From contig BLFN01000798.1 of the NCBI GenBank assembly GCA_014634225.1, forward strand, positions 656,185 through 668,684: a DNA stretch of 12,500 bases, given 5' to 3'. This DNA is from Acropora yongei. Taxonomy: Eukaryota; Cnidaria; Anthozoa; Scleractinia; Acroporidae. The notes under the pieces are model-generated. The model worked only from the letters and a program-made list of their open reading frames with translations. It searched no databases and was not told the DNA's origin. The translations under genes and the position numbers were made by a program. The stretch's first letter is position 1; each line of letters starts with the position of its first letter. Positions 122-12,500 of the stretch are shown one piece after another.

Positions 122-544
122 TTTGTGGGGGTACTTTTACCAAGATGGCTGGCTCTATGCGCAGCCCAGACTATCCCGAGGACTATCCTGAAAGTGTTAA
201 TTGTCAATGGGTAATCAAACTTCCAGTGCAATATAAAGTGAGGTTGGAATTTACTGATTTCCTGCTGGAAAACAGTCGGAGCTGTCGGTTTGATTTCGTG
301 CTTGTCATGGACGGACTTCCATCTTCTCCAATCCCTGTTGGAAAATTCTGCGGAAACGGAAGCAAAGATGCTGTAGAGTCCAAGTCCAATTTCTTGACGG
401 TTTGGTTCAAGTCAGACTCCTCAATGACAGAGAAAGGATTCGAAGCTTACTGGTCTGCTATTCCAGTCGACTTTACTGAAAAGCCAACTTTTGTCTCAAC
501 GTCGTCCAAAGTTCCATCCAATGAAATAACCACCTCACCTCCGC
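122..544 (+). CDS. Exon: CUB domain 1 and Thr/Ser/Pro linker
   Basis: The acceptor is a pyrimidine-rich tract ending in AG at 120-121 and the donor is GTGAGT at 545; the exon is phase 1 at both ends. It encodes a full CUB domain with four cysteines (CGG start, NCQW, SCRFD, KFCGN) and 25 residues between the first two, the usual spacing. The calcium-site acidic triad of cbCUB domains appears present: Glu of LLEN, Asp of CRFD and Asp of FKSD. The last ~28 residues form a linker rich in Thr, Ser and Pro that leads to CUB2. An in-frame stop at 7-9 and the lack of an upstream ATG before 97 agree with intron sequence to the left of 122. Confidence 0.9.
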
Positions 545-2590
545 GTGAGTTTGATCTCAATATTTATAAGTAACACATCGTTTTGTGTTATTTAGATCTC
601 AATTTGTCCAATTTGATTGTAAGTCAAATAATATGTTGGTTCCTAAAGCAATGTACTCAGAAATCGTTGAGGGATGCGAAGTCGTTGAGACTGACTGAAA
701 TAGGTGGTATCTTGAAAGAAAGCATCACTTCCGTATGAGACAGCGTGGCGGTAATTCTTCACAACGTTTTAGTTCAAGTATTTGTCCGTTGTAAGAGGCA
801 CCCTCGTTACTTTGCTGTTTCACTTGACCCCTAATCATCTTTTTTGTTTGTTTTGTTGATGTTTGTCTTTTTATTTGTTATTCTTCGGCTGTTTTGTTTT
901 GTTTTGTTTTGTTTTGTTTGTTATCTCTGTCCTAGGATATAAAAATGGAATGCCAATTTTTTGTTATAGAGTGTTTTCACTCACGTGATTAAGGAGCATG
1001 TTTTTAATGCAAAACAAAAGAAGGCGTTTGCATAAGAAAAGAGTTCAAATCCCGGAGGATTAGTTGGGGACACCAACATGGCCGCCGTTTCTTTATTTAG
1101 GGACACCAACATGGCCGCCGTGACGTCACGTGAAAGCACTCTATACTTTTTTCGTCTAGTACCACTTATAAGGCAGGTTTTGGATACATGGTTTGGTTCA
1201 ATTATAATTCAGTACTTTTCTTTTCTTGTTAGAGTGTGGGGGAAATCCTAAAAAGCCAAGCGGTGATCTGTTCTCGCCATATTATCCCAACCCCTCTTTT
1301 GAGCCGGTGGATTGTCGGTGGGTTCTCTCAGTATACGAAGGAAACAATATATCCATTGGTTTTAACGAATTTGACCTAAACAGTGATGAAAATTGTAGCA
1401 CTGAGTACGTGGAGCTGAGGGATGGTGGGTTGGACTCCTCCAAATTGCTGGGACGGTACTGTAAATCTGCACCGATGATTATTTACGGCTCCCAGAACAA
1501 AATGTGGATGCGATATCACTCAGATGGCACTGGAAGTAGAGGTTTTGAGGTCACGTGGATAACTATGGCTCAAGCAATAAAACCAATGGAGCATAACGAG
1601 GAGAGCGATCCGAGTTTAAGTGGACCTGTTCCTCATCCATCTAGTAAGACCTTTATTTTAGATGTTATTTTCGTAAAAGCAGAAAACAGATATCAGTTTA
1701 CAACCGTGTGATGTTAATTTAAAAACGATGGCTTTGATATTGGAAAAGGGGTTTTGCGATGATTTGAATATCTCCAGATCAACAGCTAAGAACTGGAGTA
1801 GGTGTCATTGTCCGATATATGGGGGAAAACTTTGCAAGAAATTGAAGATGATTCCCAATTTTTAAACTATTTTTTATACCGGCTGCTTAGGCAATTGGAG
1901 AGAAATTCAAAAGTAAGTGACGCTGATGTTTGATCTTTTAAGAAAAGTGCGGGGACGCTCTTGGAGTTGAGAGTGGTGAAATCAAAGATGCCCAGTTATC
2001 TGCATCTTCCTCTTGGCGTGGCATAGGAGCGTTTGGTGCACAGCAAGCTAGACTTAACAATAAACAGTGGCCACAGGGGTGGAGTGCAGACGTGCGTGAT
2101 AAAAACCCATGGCTCAAGATCTCTCTAGATGTGGACCACGTGATCACTGGAATCGCGACTCAAGGACATGGCAGTTTGGTCTTTAGTGAGCGGGTGGAAA
2201 GCTATTTCGTTGTTTGGCTCGACATTAGAGCCGGCAAAGTTTATTATCATGAAGACGGGAAAATCAAGGTATAGCCCTAAAGCGGCTACACGAGTAATTG
2301 TAAAAGAAAAAGTCTATTCTTACAAGAGGTCACAGAAAGGTATTTACGAACTGTTGATAAAACTATGCTGAAAGCAACTTCGGGTTCTTTGCTTCTTCAA
2401 ACCAACAACTTAGCAGGCGTTAATGATTTCTAGACTTTTTAAGTTTCGAAAATTGGGTTTTATCAAATGAGTTGATAAAGGTTGAATTATCACCGTGTAA
2501 GATTTAGAAAGCTGACGTTTCGACAGTTAGCCCTTGTCAGAGAGAAATCAAATCTTTTAATAAAACCCAATTTTTGTCTCACTCTCCCAT

Positions 2591-2627
<37 letters not shown>

Positions 2628-5600
2628 GTTTTAACGTTTGGGTTGAATGAGTTGCTCTGAAATTGGTCATTGTATCATTTTTGTCCTTCAGATTTTCGTT
2701 GGCAATAGTGATCATGACACTGTAGTTCGTCATGTATTGAAGGAGCCGTTCATAACTAAACAGTTGACCATCCGACCAATAACATGGAAGGAAAATGTTG
2801 GTCTTCGAATGGAATTATATGGATGTAAACTTGGTAGGGCAGTTATTGTATGTTTTTTTCTTCATTGGAGTTTCTTTCAAGAAAGTCTTCTTTGCTTAGT
2901 GTTTAGAGTTCAGTTAGAGGCCCAAAGAGTACGAAACATAGGTCCTTTACTCCATATATTTTCTTTACGACTTTATTGTACCTCAGGGGCATAGCATACT
3001 AGATCTTAGGTCAGGTCCACTACCTGACCTAATACATGTAACATTTTTTTCCAAATGTGCCCCAGTCACTACAAACTTGAATGCATAATTCGATTAATTT
3101 TCTTTTTCTAATCGAAAATCGTTATTACAAATCCTTTCTTTACGAGATAACTGTCAGGAACCATTGGGATTAGAAAACGGAAACGTAAAAGATGGACAAC
3201 TTGCAGCATCATCTGCTTGGAGCAATGATCCAAAGAAATTCGGTGCACAAAGAGCTAGACTTAATTTAAATCGATGGCCAAGTGGATGGACTGCAAATGT
3301 TAAAGACCTGTCACCGTGGCTTCAAGTGAACCTGAATGATCCTTTCATCGTCACCCGTGTTGCTACTCAAGGCTATGGGGGAGCAAATGATCAGTGGGTG
3401 GAGTCTTACCGTATGTCGTGGAAAAATGGAGAGGGGATATGGCGTAATTATTCAATACCTCATCGCCGTCTGAGCACATCAAAAGTTCAATGGAGGACCA
3501 AGGTAATCAATTTTTGCCTTGTCATTCCTTGTCTAGTAAAAAGCCGGACAACTTTCTGTAAATTAAGTAGGCTTCCATATGAGTGGGTAGAATATTCAAA
3601 CAGTTACTATCTGGAGATTGACCAATCCAGTACACATTTATGGAGGTCACACTATGTTCTGAACAATAGCCTCAATTTACAAAACACAGATGAATAACAT
3701 TCATAACAATTCCTCTTTATTTTGTCCTTTTCCTTTCTTTTTTGTAATTATTTGTTTGTTTGTATTTTATGTGCCTAGGTAGGCCGTTCACTTAGCTAAG
3801 ATATACCATAAGATCTGCGATTGACAAATAAGATGAGCAAAGTGAGAGTATATGACGCGCGCATCTCTCATAAGACAGTCTGTAGTAACGAAAAAAAGTA
3901 GAAACCTTGGTCAGACCTTTATTCTTACAAGACTCCAAAAACAACAACAACAACAAAGACGAGTTCATGCGGCTTCAAAACGCGCCATGGCTTTTGGCGA
4001 GGACAAGTAGAGTACATTTTTAAAATTGCAAAAATGGCCTATCCGTACTCGCAATGCCACACGCATATAACCCGGGCGCATGGCGGTTGTATCAATTTGC
4101 GTTGACGTGGCAAAAGGTCAGGTCGCAAAGCCACAGCACACAACCAGAGCTTCTCCCTGTCTCCGCAGCATTACTGTCGGAGACCTTCCCGTGAACAGGA
4201 TTCTATTCTATCGCCCAGTAGCCCCAATGGTATTGGGCCGGCAATTATTTTACGTGATTTGAAGCATGGAGCTAAGTGTAATTTGACAACCATTTCAATC
4301 GCTGGGTTAAATTTCATATCTGCAAGATGGAACGAAACACTGGAATTAAGTGCCCTGACGGTTATGAGAATAGCTAGATTTGTAAAACTTTAAAACCGTA
4401 GATCAGATTATCTTCCCCCTTGATCATAAAGCAAAGTTGTCCTACCCTGTCCACAAACTGAACAAAGTTTACTTAGCTTGTAGTAATTCTGGATCGAGTC
4501 GTAAAATCACTCGCGTCGTCTTGTTTGCTTCCACAGATATTCCACGGTAATAAAGATCGGACTTCAGTAGTTTCACATACCTTAGAGAGAGCCATTAAGT
4601 CGAGCACTATCCGCATTTGGCCCCTTAGAAAACATAACTTTATTTCTCTGCGTGCAGAGTTGTATGGGTGTCTGGCAGGTATGTTATTTAACTAAACGAG
4701 CTTTCCATTTTCTTTTTCAGTTTCAGTTTAGTGTCAAGGCTTTCAAACTATAATTTAGAAAAGCAATTATGCCGACCAAAATAATCTTTATTGTAATGGA
4801 GTTTTACTTGTTAAGCCAAAATAAGCCAGTACTGCTAGCGCTATCAATCAGATGTTTTTTTTTTCATGATTTCACTTGCTTTTTTTCAACCTTTTATCAA
4901 ATTGTACATGTGGAATAATCAAACTTTATTTTGATATTATTTCTGCTAAATAATTTTATATTGAGATATAGCCTCAATTTCTCTATTTTCTCACATATAC
5001 CACACTTTATGTTTCATAGAGTGATAGTAATGTTAATGTTTTTGTAATGGCAAATCCACGGGATTTTAGTTTCACGATGCTGTGCCATTGTTCATAGAAC
5101 CATCACCTAGTGGTACAAACTGCACAAGAAATGGCCATCGTATGAGCGGTGAATCAAATCCACCATACAAAATGGACTGCCAGTGGAACGTTACCTCATC
5201 CACGGATAAGGGTGCTGTTATTCTGAAGTTCACAACTTTTGATTTTTTGAGAACTGACCCCTCCTGTATTAAGGACTATGTTGAGGTCCGGGACGGCCCG
5301 ACGGAAGATGCACCACTTATTGGCAAGTTTTGTGGTAGCAAGGCTCCCTCTCCAGTACAGTCCTCTGGAAGTAGTCTTTGGGTTCGTTATGTTGTATCTG
5401 GCAAGATACAGACCAAGGTTGGAATGACTTATCATGATGGCCCTGATAAGGAATACAAACTTGAAAATGAAAAGGGCTACCAAGGTATTTTACTTGTGGA
5501 ATGAACTAGTCTTAGTCAGGTAAAAAGCCATGCCGTCCAAAGTCATGGACCCTGTATTTTAAGCCTTTGGATTCCTAATTGTTACAGCGTACAATTTTGA

Positions 5601-6910
5601 ACGGCGAAATTAATGATCAACCTTTAGATATGCCAAATTTCCGTTTTCAAGTTTGCCGTTTTTTCCTTTCGTGTTGTTGGATTTGATTCCGATTGTTAGG
5701 AGAAGAATCGAGAGTCATAGGAACAATATTTTTTGTTAGTCAAATAGAAAGTGTACCATATTATAATATCATAACATATCAATGATTTCTGATAATTCTT
5801 GGCTCATTTTTCAATCTTGTTTCAAATGGTGTTATCTTGAGAATGCAGGTTTCCGTGAATTTGTTAGGGTAAAATGTCAGTTATAATTAGGAGAGACGTA
5901 CAATTTGAGGTTTTTTTCTTATGACAGGATGTGGAACCCGAGAGCACGCCACACCTCGTAGCCACCTCGGAGGAGATACATCCAAGCAGTGGTCTGGTCA
6001 ATGGCCCTGGCATGTTTCTCTTTCACTTATCGGGCAATCTGTGCAGCAGTGTAGTGGGGCTCTGATAGCCCCAAGATGGGTACTGACAGCCGCTCATTGT
6101 TTTAGAAGGTATGTCGGACTGGGTGCAATCCCCGTTTACAAATCATACGAAAAATGTGCATGGTGCGGGTAAATTGGCATTGTTATTTTGAGGGTTCTTC
6201 GGTTTAACTTAGTTTTATTCAGTTAATAGAAAAATTATGCCTGAGGAAAATGTGTGCTATTACCTGCAGCATGGACATTACGCAATGAGGACATTCAAGA
6301 TACCCATATGTCCTGACGTTGTCTTTGCAGGTTTAAACAGCCCTCTCAATGGGTTATTCGCGCCGGAGAGTTTGACCTTGCTGTTAATGAAGGTTGCGAG
6401 CAAAACGTACGAGCTCAATCAATACATATCCATTCTCAATATAAAACAGAAACAAACGAGAATGACATTGCTTTGGTTTACCTCGAAAAGTCAGTGGAAA
6501 TCAACGACAAGGTTAGCGTCCTATGCCTGCCCAATCAAGGTAGTGTGCAGCCTGGTGCCTCTTGCGTAGTGGCAGGTTGGGGATTTGCATCCAATTTCCA
6601 CCGCAGCTCTACTCCTCTAAGGTCGCATACGGTTCCCGTAGTTTCTCGTCAGACCTGTAACAAAGTCAGTTCTTACGCTGGTCTTGTGAAAGAAAAAATG
6701 ATTTGTGCGGGATTTGAAGAAGGCAGTGACGACAGATGCTACGGCGACGGAGGAGGTCCTCTTATGTGCAAGGACTTCCAGGGAAAGTGGTTCGTTGGTG
6801 GAATTAATAGCTGGGGTCAAGGTTGTGGACTTCGCGGTAAATATGGAGTTTTCACCTTAACTGAGAGCTTTCGAGACTGGATTGACCGTTATTTGAGAGA
6901 CAACTACTGA
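122..6910 (+). CDS. Secreted CUB/F5-8C multidomain protein with inactive trypsin-like domain (5'-partial, nine exons)
   Basis: Nine exons (122-544, 1233-1643, 1943-2268, 2692-2833, 3147-3502, 4537-4678, 5098-5484, 5928-6108, 6331-6910) join into one frame of 981 residues plus stop; all GT..AG junctions agree in phase. Domain order is CUB1 (1 to ~112), CUB2 (142 to ~252), F5/8C-1 (280-430), F5/8C-2 (436-596), CUB3 (~608-729) and trypsin-like S1 (730-981). CUB and F5/8C modules bind proteins, glycans or lipids outside the cell, so a secreted role in adhesion, recognition or a protease-like cascade is inferred. The start codon and signal peptide lie upstream; more modules could precede CUB1. There is no transmembrane segment after the protease domain, so the C-terminus is extracellular. 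The S1 domain lacks its catalytic Ser and a normal activation site. The architecture is confident from sequence; the biological role is not known. Confidence 0.9.
891..919 (+). repeat. (GTTTT)n microsatellite
   Basis: About six consecutive GTTTT units lie within a longer T/G-rich stretch (about 838-920). It is an ordinary intronic simple repeat. Confidence 0.9.
965..1145 (+). mobile_element. MITE-like non-autonomous DNA transposon in intron 1
   Basis: The ends are inverted repeats: 967-980 (TAGAGTGTTTTCAC) matches the reverse complement of 1130-1143 at 13 of 14 positions. TA dinucleotides flank both ends (965-966 and 1144-1145), consistent with a TA target duplication of the Tc1/mariner or related type. 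The body is about 177 bp with no coding capacity. Both ends carry CACGTG/GACGTCACGTG-like sequence, and the 3' half holds two copies of a GC-rich 22-mer. I recall near-identical copies as widespread in stony-coral DNA; this is memory, not a search. Confidence 0.65.
1067..1121 (+). repeat. Two 22-bp direct repeats inside the MITE
   Basis: An identical 22-mer (begins GGGACACCAACATGG, ends CCGCCGT) occurs at 1067-1088 and 1100-1121, exactly 33 bp apart. This is a short internal duplication of the element. The repeats are much richer in GC than the surrounding intron. Confidence 0.85.
1233..1643 (+). CDS. Exon: CUB domain 2
   Basis: The acceptor AG is at 1231-1232 and the donor GTAAGA begins at 1644; phase 1 on both sides. 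The first split codon becomes CAG (Gln). The domain has four cysteines (CGG start, DCRW, NCSTE, YCKS) with 25 residues between the first two, and the RDGG strand motif typical of CUB. Unlike CUB1, two of the three calcium-site positions look substituted (Asn at the FDL-N position, Glu at the CSTE position); only the Asp in YHSD remains. The last ~25 residues are a Pro/Ser/acidic linker into the first F5/8C domain. Confidence 0.9.
1943..2268 (+). CDS. Exon: F5/8 type C (discoidin) domain 1, N-terminal part
   Basis: The acceptor AG is at 1941-1942 (phase 1) and the donor AAG|GTATAG is at 2268/2269 (phase 0). The exon starts with [20 protein letters not shown], a textbook discoidin opening, followed by the [17 protein letters not shown] and PWLKISL motifs, the GIATQGHG loop and the VESYFV strand. 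The domain continues in the exon at 2692. The closing Cys pairs, by family knowledge, with the opening Cys. In the downstream F5/8C copy the equivalent region is longer by a few residues, in the loop after GATQG and before the splice site. Confidence 0.9.
2269..2691 (+). other. Intron 3 (423 bp, phase 0)
   Basis: This intron splits F5/8C-1. It holds a repeat with inverted ends (2449-2620, listed separately). The open frame that runs into the next exon from 2647 is intronic up to the AG at 2690-2691. Confidence 0.85.
2449..2620 (+). repeat. Inverted-repeat element in intron 3 (MITE-like)
   Basis: A perfect 15-bp inverted repeat, AAAATTGGGTTTTAT at 2449-2463 against 2560-2574, brackets about 126 bp. 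Inside are a near-palindrome (TATCAAATGAGTTGATA, 2461-2477) and a GCTGACGTTTCGACAGTTAG segment. To the right, a second palindrome (AGTTTCT-tt-AGAAACT, 2605-2620) follows. I recall this whole series as a high-copy coral repeat, so I extend the call to 2620; the exact right edge is uncertain. It has no coding capacity. Confidence 0.6.
2692..2833 (+). CDS. Exon: F5/8 type C domain 1, C-terminal part
   Basis: The acceptor TTGTCCTTCAG ends at 2691 (phase 0) and the donor begins GTAGG at 2834 (phase 1). It supplies the second half of the discoidin fold: [10 protein letters not shown], the RPITW strand and the terminal LRMELYGC. This closes the domain, and only three residues (Lys, Leu, Asp) separate its last Cys from Asn-Cys of the next discoidin domain, so the two are nearly abutting. 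Exon length (142 bp) is identical to that of the equivalent exon of F5/8C-2. Confidence 0.9.
2834..3146 (+). other. Intron 4 (313 bp, phase 1)
   Basis: It lies between the two F5/8C domains and contains the perfect hairpin at 3006-3032. The acceptor (CCTTTCTTTACGAG, ending 3146) is preferred over the CAG at 3155-3157. Only the former keeps the phase and retains the opening Cys of F5/8C-2. Confidence 0.8.
3006..3032. repeat. Perfect 11-bp inverted repeat with 5-base loop
   Basis: TTAGGTCAGGT at 3006-3016 and its exact reverse complement at 3022-3032 flank the loop CCACT. The arms contain AGGTCA and TGACCT, the half-site of many nuclear receptors, in inverted orientation 11 bp apart. Whether it acts as DNA element or RNA hairpin is unknown. 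Confidence 0.8.
3147..3502 (+). CDS. Exon: F5/8 type C domain 2, N-terminal part
   Basis: The acceptor AG is at 3145-3146 (phase 1; the split codon gives Asp) and the donor AAG|GTAATC is at 3502/3503 (phase 0). It starts [20 protein letters not shown], a canonical discoidin opening, followed by [39 protein letters not shown] and a WRNYS strand. It is 30 bp longer than the equivalent exon of F5/8C-1. The frame stays open past the donor to 3697, but that part has no discoidin character and is intron. Confidence 0.9.
3503..4536 (+). other. Intron 5 (1034 bp, phase 0)
   Basis: This is the longest intron and splits F5/8C-2 at the same position as intron 3 splits F5/8C-1. It contains T-rich low-complexity sequence (about 3717-3768) and a short (CAA)n run (3943-3957). 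About 4025-4230 is richer in GC than the surrounding intron, and I could not identify it. The 60-codon open frame at 4080-4262 has no domain similarity. Confidence 0.8.
4537..4678 (+). CDS. Exon: F5/8 type C domain 2, C-terminal part
   Basis: The acceptor TTGCTTCCACAG ends at 4536 (phase 0) and the donor GTATGT begins at 4679 (phase 1). The 142-bp exon encodes [10 protein letters not shown], the IRIWP strand and the closing LRAELYGC, aligning residue for residue with exon 2692-2833. The short length makes it easy to miss in an ORF scan, but without it F5/8C-2 would lose its last strands and its closing Cys. The split last codon joins CUB3 as GAA (Glu). Confidence 0.9.
4679..5097 (+). other. 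Intron 6 (419 bp, phase 1)
   Basis: It separates F5/8C-2 from CUB3. It is AT-rich with T runs around 4855-4863 and 4882-4887. No repeat or coding segment was recognised. Confidence 0.8.
5098..5484 (+). CDS. Exon: CUB domain 3 (divergent)
   Basis: The acceptor ATTGTTCATAG ends at 5097 and the donor GTATTT begins at 5485; phase 1 on both sides. It encodes a CUB-like domain with four cysteines ([29 protein letters not shown]). The N-terminal part is short: 17 residues lie between the first two cysteines instead of 25, and the CGG start is missing. The calcium-site Glu and the second Asp are not conserved (FDFLR; YVVSGK). A long charged insert of about 20 residues precedes GYQG. The last CUB strand is absent, because the next exon starts the protease domain directly. 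NCT and NVT sequons suggest N-glycosylation. Confidence 0.85.
5485..5927 (+). other. Intron 7 (443 bp, phase 1)
   Basis: It separates CUB3 from the trypsin-like domain. I searched it by eye for a missing final CUB strand and found no phase-compatible exon. It is otherwise AT-rich and featureless. Confidence 0.75.
5928..6108 (+). CDS. Exon: trypsin-like domain, N-terminal part with His57
   Basis: The acceptor TTCTTATGACAG ends at 5927 (phase 1) and the donor GTATGT begins at 6109 (phase 2). The exon opens with the Cys that normally tethers the protease to its upstream chain (residue 730), then a ~15-residue activation peptide. Where active relatives have R-IVGG, this has RSHLGG (5957-5974). 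Aligned on the GG, position 15 is Ser and Ile16 is His. WPWHVSLSL, the CSGALI region and TAAHC with His57 (codon 6095-6097) follow. The intron just after the His57 codon is common in S1 protease genes. Confidence 0.92.
6331..6910 (+). CDS. Terminal exon: trypsin-like domain C-terminal part, catalytic Ser replaced by Gly
   Basis: The acceptor GTCTTTGCAG ends at 6330 and the stop TGA is at 6908-6910. Asp102 sits in ENDIALVYL (6464-6466). The active-site motif reads [13 protein letters not shown]: Asp189 (6731-6733) and Asp194 (6746-6748) are present, but the Ser195 codon is GGA (6749-6751). SWGQGCG and YGVFT keep the S1-pocket glycines 216 and 226, so the pocket remains trypsin-like. With the previous exon the domain keeps all five expected disulfides (1-122, 42-58, 136-201, 168-182, 191-220). 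It adds an eleventh Cys in the 70-80 loop (6395-6397). The frame is otherwise intact, so this looks like a maintained serine protease homologue and not a decayed pseudogene. Confidence 0.93.
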
Positions 6911-7340
6911 ACTTAACATGCTTGGGTAATTTCATGCAGCCGGTGAATGTGGGTTTTGAAGATGTTAGTTAGCTGGTAGAACATGCAGCGGCAGTTGAAA
7001 TCAACTAGCTCGACGAGTTGCCATTAAAACAGTATGCTGGACTTTTGCAACGCGGCGTTTTCGTTGGAAACAGAATGTAGACGGTATACGAAAGCTTACG
7101 AACAAAAACATTCACTTAACCGGAGTCAAAATATTTACTTGCTGGAAATCACTGCGTCTTTTTTTTTTTCGGTCTGTTATGTCCAAACATTCCGTAACCT
7201 GATAAACTCCTCAACAAGACGTAGCGAGGCTATCTAAATGAGACTGTGAAATATTTGTCCATCCTTGAAGTATCCTATCCCTTTCGAGATGTATTGGTCT
7301 CTCCTGTAAGCGCTAATAAATCCGTCAACGTTTGGGTTAA
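6911..7340 (+). other. Probable 3' untranslated region
   Basis: The sequence after the TGA is non-coding and runs to the first AATAAA. The open frame at 7034-7237 has no recognisable content. The 3' end is inferred from the polyadenylation signal only. Confidence 0.5.
7315..7320 (+). promoter_or_regulatory. Candidate polyadenylation signal AATAAA
   Basis: This is the first AATAAA after the stop, 405 bp downstream, followed by a G/T-rich stretch (CAACGTTTGGGTT). Further AATAAA hexamers at 8184-8189 and 8318-8323 could be alternative sites. Confidence 0.5.
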
Positions 7341-8750
7341 ATACACAACTTGAACTCCATCATTGTATAAACAAAATTTTGAAAGCCAATTCATTGTGGC
7401 GATATCTACTTGAGTTGTTCCTCAAGCAGCTCGGTAAGAACGATGACATTATTTTTTTTGTTGACCCCAGACAGCGCCTTTTCTTTTAATTTAGTGATAA
7501 ATAGATTTGAAGGGAGTTACAGATCTACGTCTCATTATTTTGCTCATGTACCGTCAAAAACTGCTAAACATAATTTCCGTGCTTGTAATGTTGTATAAAA
7601 TATATCTTGTCAGGAGACAGCTTGTGTTAGAAAGTTCCACACGTTCAAAACCAAGTTCCATTCCCATGTTTCCACCCGTAACACTAGGCTGTAGATAGTT
7701 ACAGTTTACTACAATAGGGTAAAAAAAGACAAATTGAGGCATAATTATTTTGAGATCAATGGTTCAAAAAAGTCTTTTCGCATCCGCGATCGGTAAAACC
7801 AACAAAGGGGTTTCAACCCTTGGACGAAAGGGCGATACACCACCTTTTCAGCAATCATGGAAGGTGATAGGAAGAATATTAAAGAGTTGGTTTTTGTGGT
7901 CCAGAAAACTACCCTGTCCGTCTTCTGTACATTACTCGGTCACCCACTCAACAATCTGCATCTGACATTCTCCCTCTATTGTGAGTATGTTTCAGTTGAT
8001 GTGGTATGATTTTCACTATTAAAATGTGAGTCAACAGTACTGCTATATGGTAGTAATTAGTGATATATAGTAGCTCAATCGGATTTAGAGAACACAACTG
8101 TGCACCATACATAGAAAGTCGATTTTACCAACGCTATTTGGTGGCACTAAATTTAGACAACCTGAGATCTGTTCCAACTTTTCAATAAATTTGTCTCGTT
8201 GCATTGTGTTGTGCAAATCTGTAAAATTTGAAAGATAACTATCAACAAACTACATCGTCCAACGTGATGCTTTTCGATACACCTCTAATGTGTTGACATT
8301 GATGTTACTTGCATAGCAATAAAGAGCTGAGACGTTTGAGAAGTTAAGTATTTGTTGCCTACTTACCATTTAATACGAGGACGGCTACTTAGAATTCACC
8401 ATTTTCCTTGCAAAGACCTATTGCCAGAAAAAGTCTTGTGGAGGTCAAAATGTATAGTTCAGAGATTGTGCTTGTAGCAACTCATCGGCTTAAAAATATT
8501 GATCATGTATTCTCGCGCTTGACAGTCACGACAGTAAGGTGTCATATTATTGAGATCGAAGACGATTTCGCAGTTTGCAACGACTTGGGACATTCGACTG
8601 TATGTGCTAGTGATCTCCAGTCATGCTAGTCTCAATCATCGCGGATGCGCGTTTTCTGTCAGATTAACCTTCGTTAGTTGAAGTGGATTCAGCAGCATCT
8701 GATCTGAAGTCCTAGTCTCGGTGATTTTGTTTAGAGGCTATCGTTCTTTC
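7341..8750. other. Intergenic stretch, no gene recognised
   Basis: Both strands were read. Open frames of 60 to 73 codons at 7410-7598, 7507-7698, 7750-7965 and 8408-8629 (plus) and 7554-7742 (minus) show no domain motif and overlap one another. No tRNA, rRNA or transposase was seen. Two AATAAA hexamers (8184, 8318) lie here. Confidence 0.6.
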
Positions 8751-8755
8751 CTTAT

Positions 8756-8786
8756 TTACGTAATTTCATTTCCTTCACTGACGTCA
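8756..8786. promoter_or_regulatory. Paired bZIP-type palindromes
   Basis: TTACGTAA (8756-8763, PAR/C/EBP-type) and TGACGTCA (8779-8786, full CRE) lie 15 bp apart. Both are perfect palindromes. Function is inferred from consensus only, with no gene start shown nearby. Confidence 0.3.
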
Positions 8787-9186
8787 ATCTCTCGAAACAC
8801 GGTCTTTTGATTGCCGAAGGAAGATCGGAAAATCAATAGTACCTTTCTTCCAAGCATTCAGCACGTTAACTAGAATTTGGGTTCCTTACGCTACCAGCAG
8901 CCAATACAGGGACAATTTTCGAGCGCAAGAGGAAAGGGGTGATTTGTGTCCAATTAGTGGTAAGTACCTAGAACGGTGTTTCTGTTGCGTTGAAGCATCA
9001 AAATAATTTTCTTTTTCCTTTCTTCTGTGATCATTCTACTCAAAATGATTAATCTGAATTTAGACACTGTTAATTGGTTCGATAAAATCTTTAATGGTAA
9101 GGCATTTGTCCTGACATTATATTTGAGCTCTCGGCGGTTTGACCTTTCGACGTACTATGTGGATGAGAAAGTGTAGATACTCTTGC
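8787..9186. other. Non-coding stretch with a donor-like site
   Basis: I saw no coding region. A strong donor-like sequence (GTG|GTAAGT, cut at 8959/8960) follows a G/A-rich segment. It could mark an untranslated first exon of the gene to the right, but nothing else supports this. Confidence 0.35.
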
Positions 9187-9212
9187 TAATGCAAATGTGT
9201 CCCTTTGCATTA
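9187..9212. promoter_or_regulatory. Inverted pair of POU octamer-like sites
   Basis: TAATGCAAA (9187-9195) and its exact reverse complement (9204-9212) are separated by 8 bp. The left arm with its next base is a perfect octamer ATGCAAAT (9189-9196). The right arm is an octamer with one mismatch on the minus strand. A forkhead consensus TGTTTAC lies at 9311-9317. Confidence 0.35.
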
Positions 9213-12080
9213 ACCTCATCAGCAAAAACAAATCGAATATCGTGCATTTGCGTGCCACAGCATAAACTAAGCGCGATTTCGTTTTAAATGTACGTACCCG
9301 TTCAGTTCATTGTTTACATAACATAAGTTTAGAAAAGGGAGGAAAAATGAGAAGTCATCGATTCGAGAAAAACTCAACACCTATCGATACCCAATGGGAA
9401 CAAAGTTATCCTTATTTTTTGCCTTTGTTTCCTTTCTTTTTTTTTTTTTCTAGCAAAGGAGCAAAGTGGCAATACTAGCCAAGCGCCATGTCTCGTGCGA
9501 TACTGGTTGCTTGAACGAGTTAATTTTGTTCATTTCAGTGAAATAGAAATTATTAACTGGGCGTAGGAGAAGCAAAAAGGACAAATGGAGATGAAGGCCC
9601 TTCCAAATGATCGCATTAGCAATATCTTAAACTGCGTCAATTCCAAAACCAGTTTCAAATGCGTTAATTATCAGCTAATGAGCTATAATTTTTTTTTATT
9701 TAAGCCTAATATTTATGCATGCGAAAACACGTCGAGTGTCTTGTTTGTCAGATCTGGTCGATTACTTGTTTCTCTGTTAAAAAGTGCACGTAACTAAAGA
9801 CATTTCGCTGTTTGAAATCAGAAAGAAAAATTTAGCAACGTCATAATATTGTGTTAGGAGCTGCAGGTGATAATTAGATTAGTAGGACAAATTGTCCGCA
9901 TTCTCAATGCTAGCTTACAAGGGCGAGGAAGTTACTGGTTGACATCCTTTTGTTGGTGTCAGTAATTTACGAAAAAAAAAAGTAACGCAAGCATTGCTTG
10001 CTGATAGGTTACTGCATTTGACGAACACGGTCGACCAACACCAAACATAAGTAAAACATCGGTACGTACACACTTCAGCAATAATGGAACGGAAATTTGA
10101 AAACAAGCGTTCAACTTCTTAGCACAATTAAGGGGTGTTTCCATAAGGCAAAGCTATCAATGTATCAGGAAACATTGAAACTTTACTTTTCCTAGGGGTC
10201 TAACATTCCTAAATTGACTTTGAAAAAAAAATAGCATGGCGTGGACAACACAGGAATAATTGACCTATGAGATACCCTGACACGTAATCGAAAGGTTGTA
10301 ACATAAGTTTTTTATTTATTGTTATTTTAGTCATTGCTCTTTTTATTTATTGTTCTTGCTCTTTTTTTTTTGAGACTTTCGTTGAGCTTATTGGTATATA
10401 TGTAAATCTTATACTCTTAAGTTAGCAAAATTTGAGAAGTCAGAGGGTGGATTTTCAAAAGTGAGTGCCTAAATTAGGGCTTCTTTTTCTATCCCAAAAT
10501 AAGCTAATGATAGAAATGAACTACCGATGTGCTCTCTTGAGGTTAAAACCTTTCTAAATTCAGTACTGAAATCATGCCTTGAGCTCAGAGCCGAAAACAG
10601 GGTTCACTTCATTTTCATAACATTCAAGAAAAAGCGATTGCTAGTCAGGCTTCCGCAGGCAGGACTTGTTCTTGCGTGTTTTTCAGCCAACTAAATGGGA
10701 GACAGTCTCTTAAAAACTTGGCGCCTTCTCACGATTCATCGCGGGAAAAAAGCGGCATGCGTAATAATGAAGCTTATACTTGAGTCACTGTTTTTATGAA
10801 ATGATGCAAATATATATTCACTGACGGGAGGTAGTTGTCCTGATGCGTTAGGTTCTGCAGTTCTCTGTATTGAAAGACGTTTTCTGTTGAATTTAGTCTC
10901 GAGAACACACAGTTAACAAAAGGGTGAGTTTTCAAAGATATTTTGGTCATGTACATGTGCTGTAGCGTTGTTCAAATGCGTTAAAACCTAGAAATGACTT
11001 GAGAGAGATTAACATTGATCGGACTGGAGATCACTAGCTGGCTCTTTGCTAGAATGCGCGCAGTTGGGCTAACTGTACTGCATGCGATTATCAGTTTTTC
11101 AAGCGGAGTGACTCTAGAAGGAAAGTTGTAAATTGGCCTTGTGAAGTCAGTGATTTTCCTGCTCTCAAGATCTCAGGAGAAAGTCACGTGAACCATATTG
11201 TTTTCTATTCCCTGTATTTGTTCCGACCAGCGCGATAATTGCTTTGATAGAGACAAACATACTACAATCGTCCTTTGTTAGTTAATCTGTAAGTTGCCTT
11301 TTTCTCTATGCCTTCCTATGTTTTTTTCTTCTAGATCTTCTCATTCTAGGCTAAATCATTCCCGTAGAGTTCAAAGTTCAATTAGCGAAACGAGCTTTAG
11401 TTGTGTATTTTTGCCACCATGGGATTATGCTGTGCAAATTGTTTTGAAGAAACAGCTTTTTGTTTATCACCGATTTAATTTACGCTTGTGTGCTTTCTGA
11501 GTTAAGCGCTGCTCTGAAGTATGCAAGGTGAACAAGTCTCTGTGACTCTCTTATTACCTGCTAATGCCCTGAGGTGAGGGCTAAATTTGGTTATTTTTGT
11601 CGCCATTATTCTTGTTAAATAGGTTAAATATATTGACGCAAATTTACAATTTCTTAAAGATATTTAAAGTTGCGAGTGATGTCTCCCACGTGCCGTACCA
11701 ATCACTTCTAAAATACCTTTCAAACAATAGACAGTCACATTTACAGCTGGAAAGATCTGTTAACGATGCTAGGAATTCTATTATCTCAAGGAAAAGAACC
11801 AGACGGGAGGCCGCTTTGCGTAAATGCTGTAAGGATGACTAAGCCTGCACTGGGCTTGGAATGTAAAACATGACTGTCATAGCTCAAGCTTTCTTGCGAA
11901 CGATTACATCTAATTATAAAGGGTTTTGTTATGATAATGTAGTGACACTAAAAATTTCTTAACTTTGTCGTTTCTTTATATAGAACCGCGGATCAGTGCG
12001 TAAGTGAAATGACAATTTCTAGCTAGTATCCGAGTGGGTAGAAATTCCAAAGCGATCGACGTGTGGACTGAGTCATTTTA
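9213..12080. other. Intergenic stretch, no gene recognised
   Basis: The stretch is AT-rich with poly-T tracts (9437-9450, 9691-9698, 10362-10371) and a repeated TTTTTATTTATTGTT (10308-10322 region and about 27 bp later). Small frames on both strands (9585-9797, 9915-10144, 10774-10956, 11294-11500) show no domain motif. An 81-codon frame at 11597-11842 has a basic C-terminal part and a donor-like GTAAGG at 11829, but no identifiable homology. Two E2F-type sites are listed separately. No RNA gene was recognised. Confidence 0.55.
10718..10747. promoter_or_regulatory. Two E2F-consensus sites
   Basis: TTGGCGC (10718-10724, plus strand) and GCGGGAA (10741-10747, TTCCCGC on the minus strand) both fit the E2F core TTSSCGC. 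They lie in inverted orientation 16 bp apart, in a locally GC-rich patch. This is consensus matching only. Confidence 0.25.
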
Positions 12081-12129
12081 GCGGCGGAAGAAGTCAGCAA
12101 GCTGAAGACACGAATCCTCAATAAATTAG
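12081..12129 (+). other. Possible 5' untranslated exon of the right-hand gene
   Basis: A strong donor (TTAG|GTAAGT, cut at 12129/12130) pairs well with the acceptor at 12331-12332. A weak acceptor (GTCATTTTAG) ends at about 12080, so the exon may be internal, or it may be the first exon with an unknown start. Upstream, GTAAGT at 12000 after a strong acceptor (ending 11983) could frame a 16-bp micro-exon. All of this is non-coding if it exists. Confidence 0.35.
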
Positions 12130-12360
12130 GTAAGTGATGCGCTATGTATGAAATTTACATGAAATTGTGCGGGTTTGACAACCTTGAGGAGTAACCACCG
12201 TCTCGAAGTACATTATAATTATACACGCCGAACGCACATTATTCCGTTTCACTCCATTCTTCTACTCTTTTGAATTGTTGAATGGAACTTGCTGATAGTC
12301 AACGTGATTTTGGTCTCTTTTCTCCGTTCTAGGAAAAGGAACAAGAGAGTTGAGTAATAC

Positions 12361-12500
12361 ATGATCCATACTATGATGCAAACCTCACATTTTCCGCTGA
12401 TATGTTTGCTTCTCATGTTACCAAAGATGATCTCTAGTTCTTCAAACGGCGAAAAAAATCATCGAAACACCCTGGGAAAATCTTTGAAATCACCCCTATC
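12361..12500 (+). CDS. Start of a secreted or membrane protein gene (3'-partial)
   Basis: An acceptor (TTTTCTCCGTTCTAG) ends at 12332. Within that exon an in-frame stop (TAA, 12355-12357) is followed by ATG at 12361 and an open frame to the window edge, 46 residues. The sequence MIHTMMQTSHFPLICLLLML has a classic hydrophobic core (FPLICLLLML), then a Ser-rich stretch likely to contain the signal-peptidase site, then a basic, polar tail. The ATG at 12373 has a better context (A at -3) than the one at 12361, so either Met1 or Met5 may start translation. The family cannot be told from this fragment. The signal peptide suggests an extracellular or membrane product. Confidence 0.5.
   Translation, partial: MIHTMMQTSHFPLICLLLMLPKMISSSSNGEKNHRNTLGKSLKSPL

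What the first reader, a model, noticed from the sequence alone, without database searches (positions are those of the whole stretch)
5957..6757. Catalytically dead trypsin-like domain: Ser195 to Gly plus a destroyed activation site
His57 (6095-6097) and Asp102 (6464-6466) are intact, but the nucleophile codon is GGA (6749-6751), giving GDGGGP. The R-IVGG activation motif reads RSHLGG, so the Ile16 N-terminus needed for the Asp194 salt bridge cannot form. Two independent lesions in an otherwise open frame with all disulfides kept point to selection for a non-enzymatic fold. The same GDGGGP change defines arthropod clip-domain serine protease homologues such as Masquerade, which act as cofactors in immune and adhesion pathways. 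A cnidarian protein of this kind would be an independent or ancient parallel.
Basis: partly seen in the sequence, partly recalled or inferred. Interest (0 to 1): 0.75.

Follow-up and report, generated by a model that had tools for sequence, protein, structure and literature searches.

The report
Dead trypsin domain kept in corals
A secreted coral protein ends in a trypsin-shaped domain that has lost the ability to cut; relatives in corals and sea anemones carry the same loss, so the dead domain seems to have been kept for a very long time and probably binds something rather than cutting it.

Summary
The window carries the last 9 exons (981 aa, no stop) of an Acropora-type gene: CUB-CUB-F5/8C-F5/8C-CUB-trypsin. 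His57 and Asp102 are intact; codon 195 (6749-6751) is GGA, Gly; no activation site remains. It is neither an error nor a pseudogene: all 16 family sequences compared have Gly195, among them A. cervicornis, unnamed coral-like transcripts, and the anemones Actinostola and Nematostella. None of 8 sequences that cover the activation segment has an IVGG-type start. The family is one clade (96/93), so the serine was most simply lost once. The dead domain is nearly as conserved as the CUB and F5/8C domains, and the cleft residues His57, Asp102, Asp194, Ser214 and Tyr225 never vary where covered. Best reading: a secreted serine protease homologue whose cleft is kept as a docking site behind a neuropilin-like head. 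It has no clip domain. Inactive trypsins were already reported in Nematostella (11 of 72, PMC6767649); in what I saw, no paper describes this architecture. The partner is unknown and dN/dS was not computed.

The parts
122..544 (+). exon: CUB domain (4th of 6 by comparison with P0002, P0004, P0006; 3rd of 5 by comparison with P0003)
   Evidence: AG/GT borders and open frame; Pfam CUB; CUB stretches 6, 5, 6, 6 in P0002, P0003, P0004, P0006, their order read by eye
1233..1643 (+). exon: CUB domain, next in order
1943..2268 (+). exon: F5/8 type C domain 1, first part
2692..2833 (+). exon: F5/8 type C domain 1, second part
3147..3502 (+). exon: F5/8 type C domain 2, first part
4537..4678 (+). exon: F5/8 type C domain 2, second part
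5098..5484 (+). exon: last CUB domain
5928..6108 (+). exon: trypsin-like domain, N-terminal part with Cys1, the degenerate activation segment and His57
5957..5974 (+). degenerate activation site RSHLGG in place of R-IVGG
   Evidence: 0 of 8 sequences covering this segment (window, P0001-P0006, P0187) have an IVGG-type start
6095..6097 (+). His57 codon CAT (kept; 8 of 8 rows that cover it)
6331..6910 (+). last exon: rest of the trypsin-like domain and stop codon (TGA 6908-6910)
   Evidence: acceptor and frame (whose script ended the exon one base short of the full stop codon); stop from the ORF list
6464..6466 (+). Asp102 codon GAC (kept; 16 of 16 rows)
6749..6751 (+). codon 195 = GGA, Gly in place of the nucleophile Ser (16 of 16 rows)

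Best explanation
This is the C-terminal serine protease homologue (pseudoprotease) domain of a large secreted mosaic protein of corals and sea anemones. Longer relatives read: N-terminal leader, five CUB (four in P0003), two F5/8 type C, one CUB, trypsin-like domain. Shown by sequence: the nucleophile is Gly, the activation site is gone, the fold is kept, and the state is shared across the family and conserved. Inferred: the CUB and F5/8C array tethers the protein to a surface, matrix or glycan ligand, and the trypsin-like domain is an uncleaved, single-chain binding module. Its substrate cleft (His57, Asp102, Ser214-Trp215, usually Gly216 and Asp189) is kept because a protein partner docks there or next to it. 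The partner is most likely an active protease or zymogen of an extracellular cascade (cofactor role), or a canonical protease inhibitor.
Against: No partner, localisation or expression level was found. Conservation of His57 and Asp102 could reflect fold packing alone, and His57 is covered by only 8 rows. In Nematostella the trypsin-like domain is the least conserved domain (40.3% against 43-52%). Only one Nematostella and one Actinostola sequence represent anemones; most other rows have no species name. The cleft is not perfectly kept: residue 226 is Ser in 5 of 16 rows, residue 189 Gly in 1, residue 216 not Gly in 2. The model block that holds residue 195 (961-970) has lower confidence, 78. 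dN/dS was not computed.
Confidence: 0.6

Rival explanations
1. The dead domain is a purely structural or adhesive module of the extracellular matrix (or mucus, or skeletal matrix); its old cleft has no role and only the fold is selected.
For: Modular CUB and F5/8C architecture; CUB-plus-peptidase proteins occur in coral skeletal matrix lists (PMC4043741 and PMC7115838, passages seen).
Against: Cleft residues are more invariant than the core average. By contrast, in mosquito SPCLIP1 all three triad residues are replaced (PMC3764210, passages), so a trypsin-like fold need not keep them. Whether the window protein is in any skeleton is untested.
Confidence: 0.25
2. Residual or unusual catalysis: the His57-Asp102 pair with Gly195 still performs slow or substrate-assisted hydrolysis.
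For: His57, Asp102 and Gly193 kept in all rows that cover them.
Against: Ser195 is missing in 16 of 16 rows and the Ile16-type N-terminus, which orders the oxyanion hole, in 8 of 8 sequences that cover it. No known S1 protease works without both (recalled).
Confidence: 0.04
3. Sequencing or assembly error, or a decaying pseudogene.
For: None beyond the single window.
Against: A. cervicornis P0001 and 14 further sequences share Gly195; the frame is open over 981 codons with GT/AG borders; transcript-like contigs exist.
Confidence: 0.01
4. Decoy for endogenous protease inhibitors: the dead cleft soaks up serpin, Kazal or Kunitz inhibitors and so protects active proteases.
For: Trypsin-like S1 pocket Asp189 kept in 15 of 16 rows; S195A trypsinogen-BPTI and des-Ile16-Val17 trypsinogen-BPTI complexes exist in the PDB (titles).
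Against: Residue 190 is Arg, Asn, Ser, Lys or Thr and residue 192 is Tyr in 13 of 16 rows, so the pocket is not held fully constant; nothing direct.
Confidence: 0.15

Closest known systems
Serine protease homologues with Ser195 to Gly (for example arthropod Masquerade and PPAF-II, vertebrate azurocidin; examples recalled)
   Same: Trypsin fold kept, GDGGxP, non-enzymatic by sequence
   Different: No clip domain; activation site also lost; array of CUB and F5/8C domains. None of these examples was fetched or put in a tree
Neuropilin-1 and -2 ectodomain (a1a2b1b2)
   Same: Best PDB match of the part before the last CUB: CUB domains followed by two F5/8C domains, E 6.1e-62; the A. cervicornis record is named Neuropilin-1. 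PMC9857879 (passages) reports Nrp1 and Nrp2 hits in Cnidaria by BLASTP; proteins like this one could be among them
   Different: In longer relatives more CUBs stand in front; a CUB and a dead trypsin domain behind; no MAM domain found. The two neuropilin CUBs both align best to the same query CUB
Ovochymases and polyserases
   Same: Next-ranked named hits after the family in the protein search; CUB plus trypsin domains, about 30% identity
   Different: No F5/8C domain listed for the ovochymase rows; several trypsin domains per chain, many with Ser195
MASP / C1r / C1s complement proteases
   Same: CUB plus trypsin domain, secreted; the family's Tyr225 is of the coagulation/complement type (class recalled)
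   Different: No EGF or CCP domain here; catalytic Ser lost
[quoted passage not shown]
   Same: CUB plus peptidase by name, found in a coral skeleton (PMC4043741 passages)

Membership tests
S1A trypsin fold | Pfam Trypsin match above the curated cut-off | tested here: met
   203.2 bits against cut-off 20.6, positions 7-220 of 220
Serine protease homologue (non-catalytic S1A) | At least one triad residue replaced | tested here: met
   Gly195 in 16 of 16 rows
Serine protease homologue (non-catalytic S1A) | No proteolytic activity in assay | not testable with these tools
   needs protein
Active S1A zymogen | Basic residue followed by IVGG-type N-terminus | tested here: not met
   0 of 8 sequences that cover the segment: window, P0001-P0006, P0187
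Clip-domain SPH (Masquerade type) | N-terminal clip domain | tested here: not met
   no clip domain in Pfam scans of the window protein (which lacks its N-terminal exons) or of the longer P0002, P0003, P0004, P0006
Clip-domain SPH (Masquerade type) | GDGGxP at 195 | tested here: met
   16 of 16 rows; Gly195 also seen in 4 vertebrate domains of 202, so not diagnostic
Neuropilin | CUB-CUB-F5/8C-F5/8C order | tested here: met
Neuropilin | MAM domain after F5/8C | tested here: not met
   no MAM in Pfam scans; CUB and trypsin stand there
Neuropilin | transmembrane helix and cytoplasmic tail | not tested
   no TM predictor was run; P0001 ends one residue after the last helix of the trypsin-like domain in the model
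MASP/C1r/C1s | EGF and CCP domains between CUBs and protease | tested here: not met
   none
Ovochymase | trypsin and CUB domains without F5/8C | tested here: not met
   two F5/8C domains present
Coral skeletal CUB-and-peptidase proteins (B8V7S0, B8VIV4) | sequence identity to these fragments | tested here: inconclusive
   sequences not held; not named among the 120 of 995 hits listed

The most novel reading that the evidence does not exclude
An ancient secreted pseudoprotease of Hexacorallia, fixed in its dead state before corals and sea anemones split, couples a neuropilin-like recognition head to an extracellular protease cascade. Its intact but dead substrate cleft serves as the docking site, functionally parallel to but evolutionarily separate from arthropod clip-domain cofactors.
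Probability: 0.3. Interest if true: 0.6.

Novelty: new variant of a known kind. Interest (0 to 1): 0.42.

Why it matters
Protease homologues that regulate immune or adhesion cascades are best known from arthropods (recalled; PMC3764210 passages). A single-origin, long-conserved example in corals and anemones with a different architecture would suggest that this trick arose independently outside Bilateria. It would also give coral immunity, settlement or matrix research a concrete secreted candidate, now recorded as Neuropilin-1 or as an uncharacterized protein. The pattern 'nucleophile lost, rest of the cleft frozen' also gives a clean natural test of whether pseudoproteases keep their cleft for binding.

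Tried and rejected
Sequencing error or pseudogene: rejected by 15 other sequences with Gly195 and by transcript-like contigs. Clip-domain membership: rejected. Same-architecture relatives with Ser195 (active paralogues): none seen among the listed hits of three protein searches (120 of 159 listed; 27 of 27; 120 of 995). Absence is not shown, since the search needs shared 5-residue words and has length limits; the search with the Nematostella protein did not even return P0001 or P0002. dN/dS: not computed, since I had no orthologue DNA. Scans of genome contigs (prokaryotes) and viral contigs were left unused, as neither should hold coral DNA. The window's own genome could not be searched. The first structure job (6 rows) gave a poor trypsin-like domain (block pLDDT 22-58 over residues 781-1020); the second with 53 rows was good. 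Neuropilin C-end-rule pocket: only glanced at in the alignment; the Asp320 position (recalled) does not look kept, but this was not tested properly. Literature: 10 searches. Those aimed at cnidarian or anthozoan protease homologues or pseudoproteases gave 0 papers, or 43 papers with 20 listed and none by title on a cnidarian homologue. Figures and supplements of PMC6767649 were not seen, so the Nematostella orthologue may be drawn there among the non-catalytic trypsins. The Exaiptasia pedal disc paper (PMC6626399, passages) lists upregulated trypsin and CUB genes; I could not identify this gene among them. PMC4890752 (passages) reports that the peptidases of the A. millepora skeleton were not detected in A. 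digitifera skeleton; PMC10363134 (passages) lists a CUB and peptidase protein among A. millepora genes with adaptation signals; neither could be tied to this gene. PMC10328876 gave only reference-list matches.
Full report
What is in the window. Nine exons with GT/AG borders join into one open frame of 981 residues without an inner stop; the stop codon is 6908-6910. Pfam finds three CUB domains, two F5/8 type C domains and one C-terminal trypsin domain. The gene's start lies upstream of the window: longer relatives have a hydrophobic N-terminal leader (judged by eye) and 6, 5, 6 and 6 CUB stretches in P0002, P0003, P0004 and P0006, one of them after the F5/8C pair. The closest named relative is Acropora cervicornis, 97% identical over the searched part (residues 500-981) and recorded as Neuropilin-1, so the window is from Acropora or a near relative (inference).

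The two lesions. His57 (6095-6097) and Asp102 (6464-6466) are intact. Codon 195 is GGA (6749-6751). The activation site reads RSHLGG at 5957-5974. In A. cervicornis even the Arg is replaced by His. The ten canonical cysteines are present; one extra Cys is found, among family rows, only in the window and A. cervicornis.

It is a family trait. The first protein search gave six long orthologues (P0001-P0006; 120 of 159 hits listed). A profile search gave eight shorter pieces covering the last exon (P0144-P0150, P0154), P0166 and P0187 for upstream exons, and the more distant P0185 (120 of 995 hits listed; sequences). In an alignment of 16 rows (window, P0001-P0006, P0144-P0150, P0154, P0185; P0166 and P0187 left out because they lack the last exon), residue 195 is Gly in 16 of 16, Asp102 is Asp in 16 of 16, and His57 is His in the 8 rows that cover it. 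Asp194, Ser214, Trp215 and Tyr225 are kept in 16 of 16, and Asp189 in 15 of 16. Against a fully frozen cleft: residue 226 is Ser in 5, residue 216 is not Gly in 2, and residue 190 takes five different letters. Residue 197 is Gly in 11 and Ser in 5; the Ser rows are both anemones (Actinostola, Nematostella) and the unnamed P0147, P0149 and P0150. Eight sequences cover the activation segment (window, P0001-P0006, P0187) and none has an IVGG-type start; in Nematostella most of the segment is deleted. Species are named only for P0001, P0005 and P0006; the rest are called coral-like from their place in the tree.

How unusual is Gly195? Of 281 trypsin-domain matches, 201 that were long enough and reached the C-terminal part, plus the window, were aligned (80 dropped). 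Residue 195 is Ser in 169 of 202, Gly in 20, Ala in 8, Leu in 2, Val in 2 and Glu in 1. Sixteen of the 20 Gly rows are this family; the other four (P0018, P0126, P0207, P0209) are vertebrate by their record names (names). So the change recurs, but in this set only here does it mark a larger clade. In a careful tree of 59 domains the 16 rows form one clade with support 96/93, and loss of Ser195 needs two changes, one in this family and one in P0209. A quick tree of 76 rows put the 15 closest rows together with support 90, P0185 next to them at 95, and then five Ser195 rows at 82, among them Clytia (P0243) and Rhopilema (P0134). P0185 sits on a long branch and its species is unknown, so its place is unsure.

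Selection. I had no orthologue DNA, so dN/dS was not computed. At the protein level the trypsin-like domain is nearly as conserved as its neighbours: identity of the window to P0001/P0002/P0003/P0004/P0005/P0006 is 98/78/73/63/48/40% for the trypsin-like domain and, for the five other domains, 95-98/67-81/69-76/63-68/44-57/43-52%. In Nematostella it is the least conserved domain. The activation segment drifts (41% against 73% for the core among the window and P0002-P0004; 29% against 60% over seven rows). That is the pattern expected if cleavage no longer matters while the body of the domain does. Of 227 core columns 68 are invariant among 15 family rows (the columns before the last exon are covered by only 7 or 8 rows), so the invariance of the catalytic-cleft positions stands out, although some of these residues also pack the fold.

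Expression. P0002, P0003 and P0004 have uninterrupted ORFs of 1437, 1288 and 1403 residues on contigs of at most 4601, 5863 and 6351 bases. The window needs eight introns for 981 residues, so I take these contigs as spliced transcripts (inference; 'lgn' taken to mean an assembly of public reads, recalled). No expression level or tissue is known.

The head. The part before the last CUB matches neuropilin best in the PDB (4gz9, E 6.1e-62), through CUB and tandem F5/8C domains. It is not a neuropilin: no MAM domain, and a CUB plus dead trypsin domain follow instead. PMC9857879 (passages) says that Nrp1 and Nrp2 were identified in Cnidaria by BLASTP; proteins like this one could be what such searches find.

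Known or new. Non-catalytic trypsins in Nematostella are in print: 61 of 72 have the full triad, likely loss of catalysis is reported in 4 of 5 clades, and the clade named non-catalytic has no associated domains (PMC6767649, sections 8 and 9 read, passages of others; figures and supplements not seen). Skeletal 'CUB and peptidase' proteins of Acropora millepora and Stylophora pistillata are in print (PMC4043741 and PMC7115838, passages), but their sequences could not be compared. Non-catalytic protease homologues acting as cofactors are documented in insects; in SPCLIP1 all three triad residues are replaced (PMC3764210, passages). In the listings and passages I saw no paper on this protein or on a cnidarian protease homologue as such. 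I therefore call it a new variant of a known kind: a serine protease homologue with a conserved architecture that I have not seen described, in corals and anemones.

Mechanism. Shown by sequence: nucleophile and activation site lost, fold kept, conserved, single clade. Inferred: transcription in relatives, secretion, surface or matrix attachment through CUB and F5/8C domains, and a docking role for the kept cleft. Unknown: partner, tissue, process.

Noticed in passing
window 965-1145 (intron between the first two exons): MITE-like insert: imperfect terminal inverted repeats beginning TATAGAGTG.TTTCAC at both ends (local alignment score 17; the best of 500 shuffles reached 11) and an internal 29-nt direct repeat at 1060-1088 and 1093-1121.
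   Followed up: partly
window 2449-2574 (intron): 28-nt inverted repeat, 89% complementary, arms 2449-2476 and 2547-2574 with 70 nt between.
   Followed up: no
P0005 (Actinostola sp. cb2023 gene model), just before its trypsin-like domain: Long KGKER tandem repeat in the predicted protein, absent in the window, P0001-P0004 and P0006; probably a microsatellite or intron read as exon by the gene model.
   Followed up: no
window 6911-12500: About 5.6 kb downstream of the gene hold only one stop-to-stop frame of 80 or more codons (11585-11842, 85 codons); it was not searched for domains.
   Followed up: no
P0018, P0126, P0207, P0209 (vertebrate trypsin domains by record name): Ser195 to Gly changes with His57 and Asp102 kept, outside the coral family.
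   Followed up: no
trypsin-like domain residue 225 (GKYG, window exon 6331-6910): Tyr225 in 16 of 16 family rows; Tyr at 225 is the mark of Na+-binding coagulation and complement type proteases (recalled), hinting that the active ancestor was of that type.
   Followed up: no
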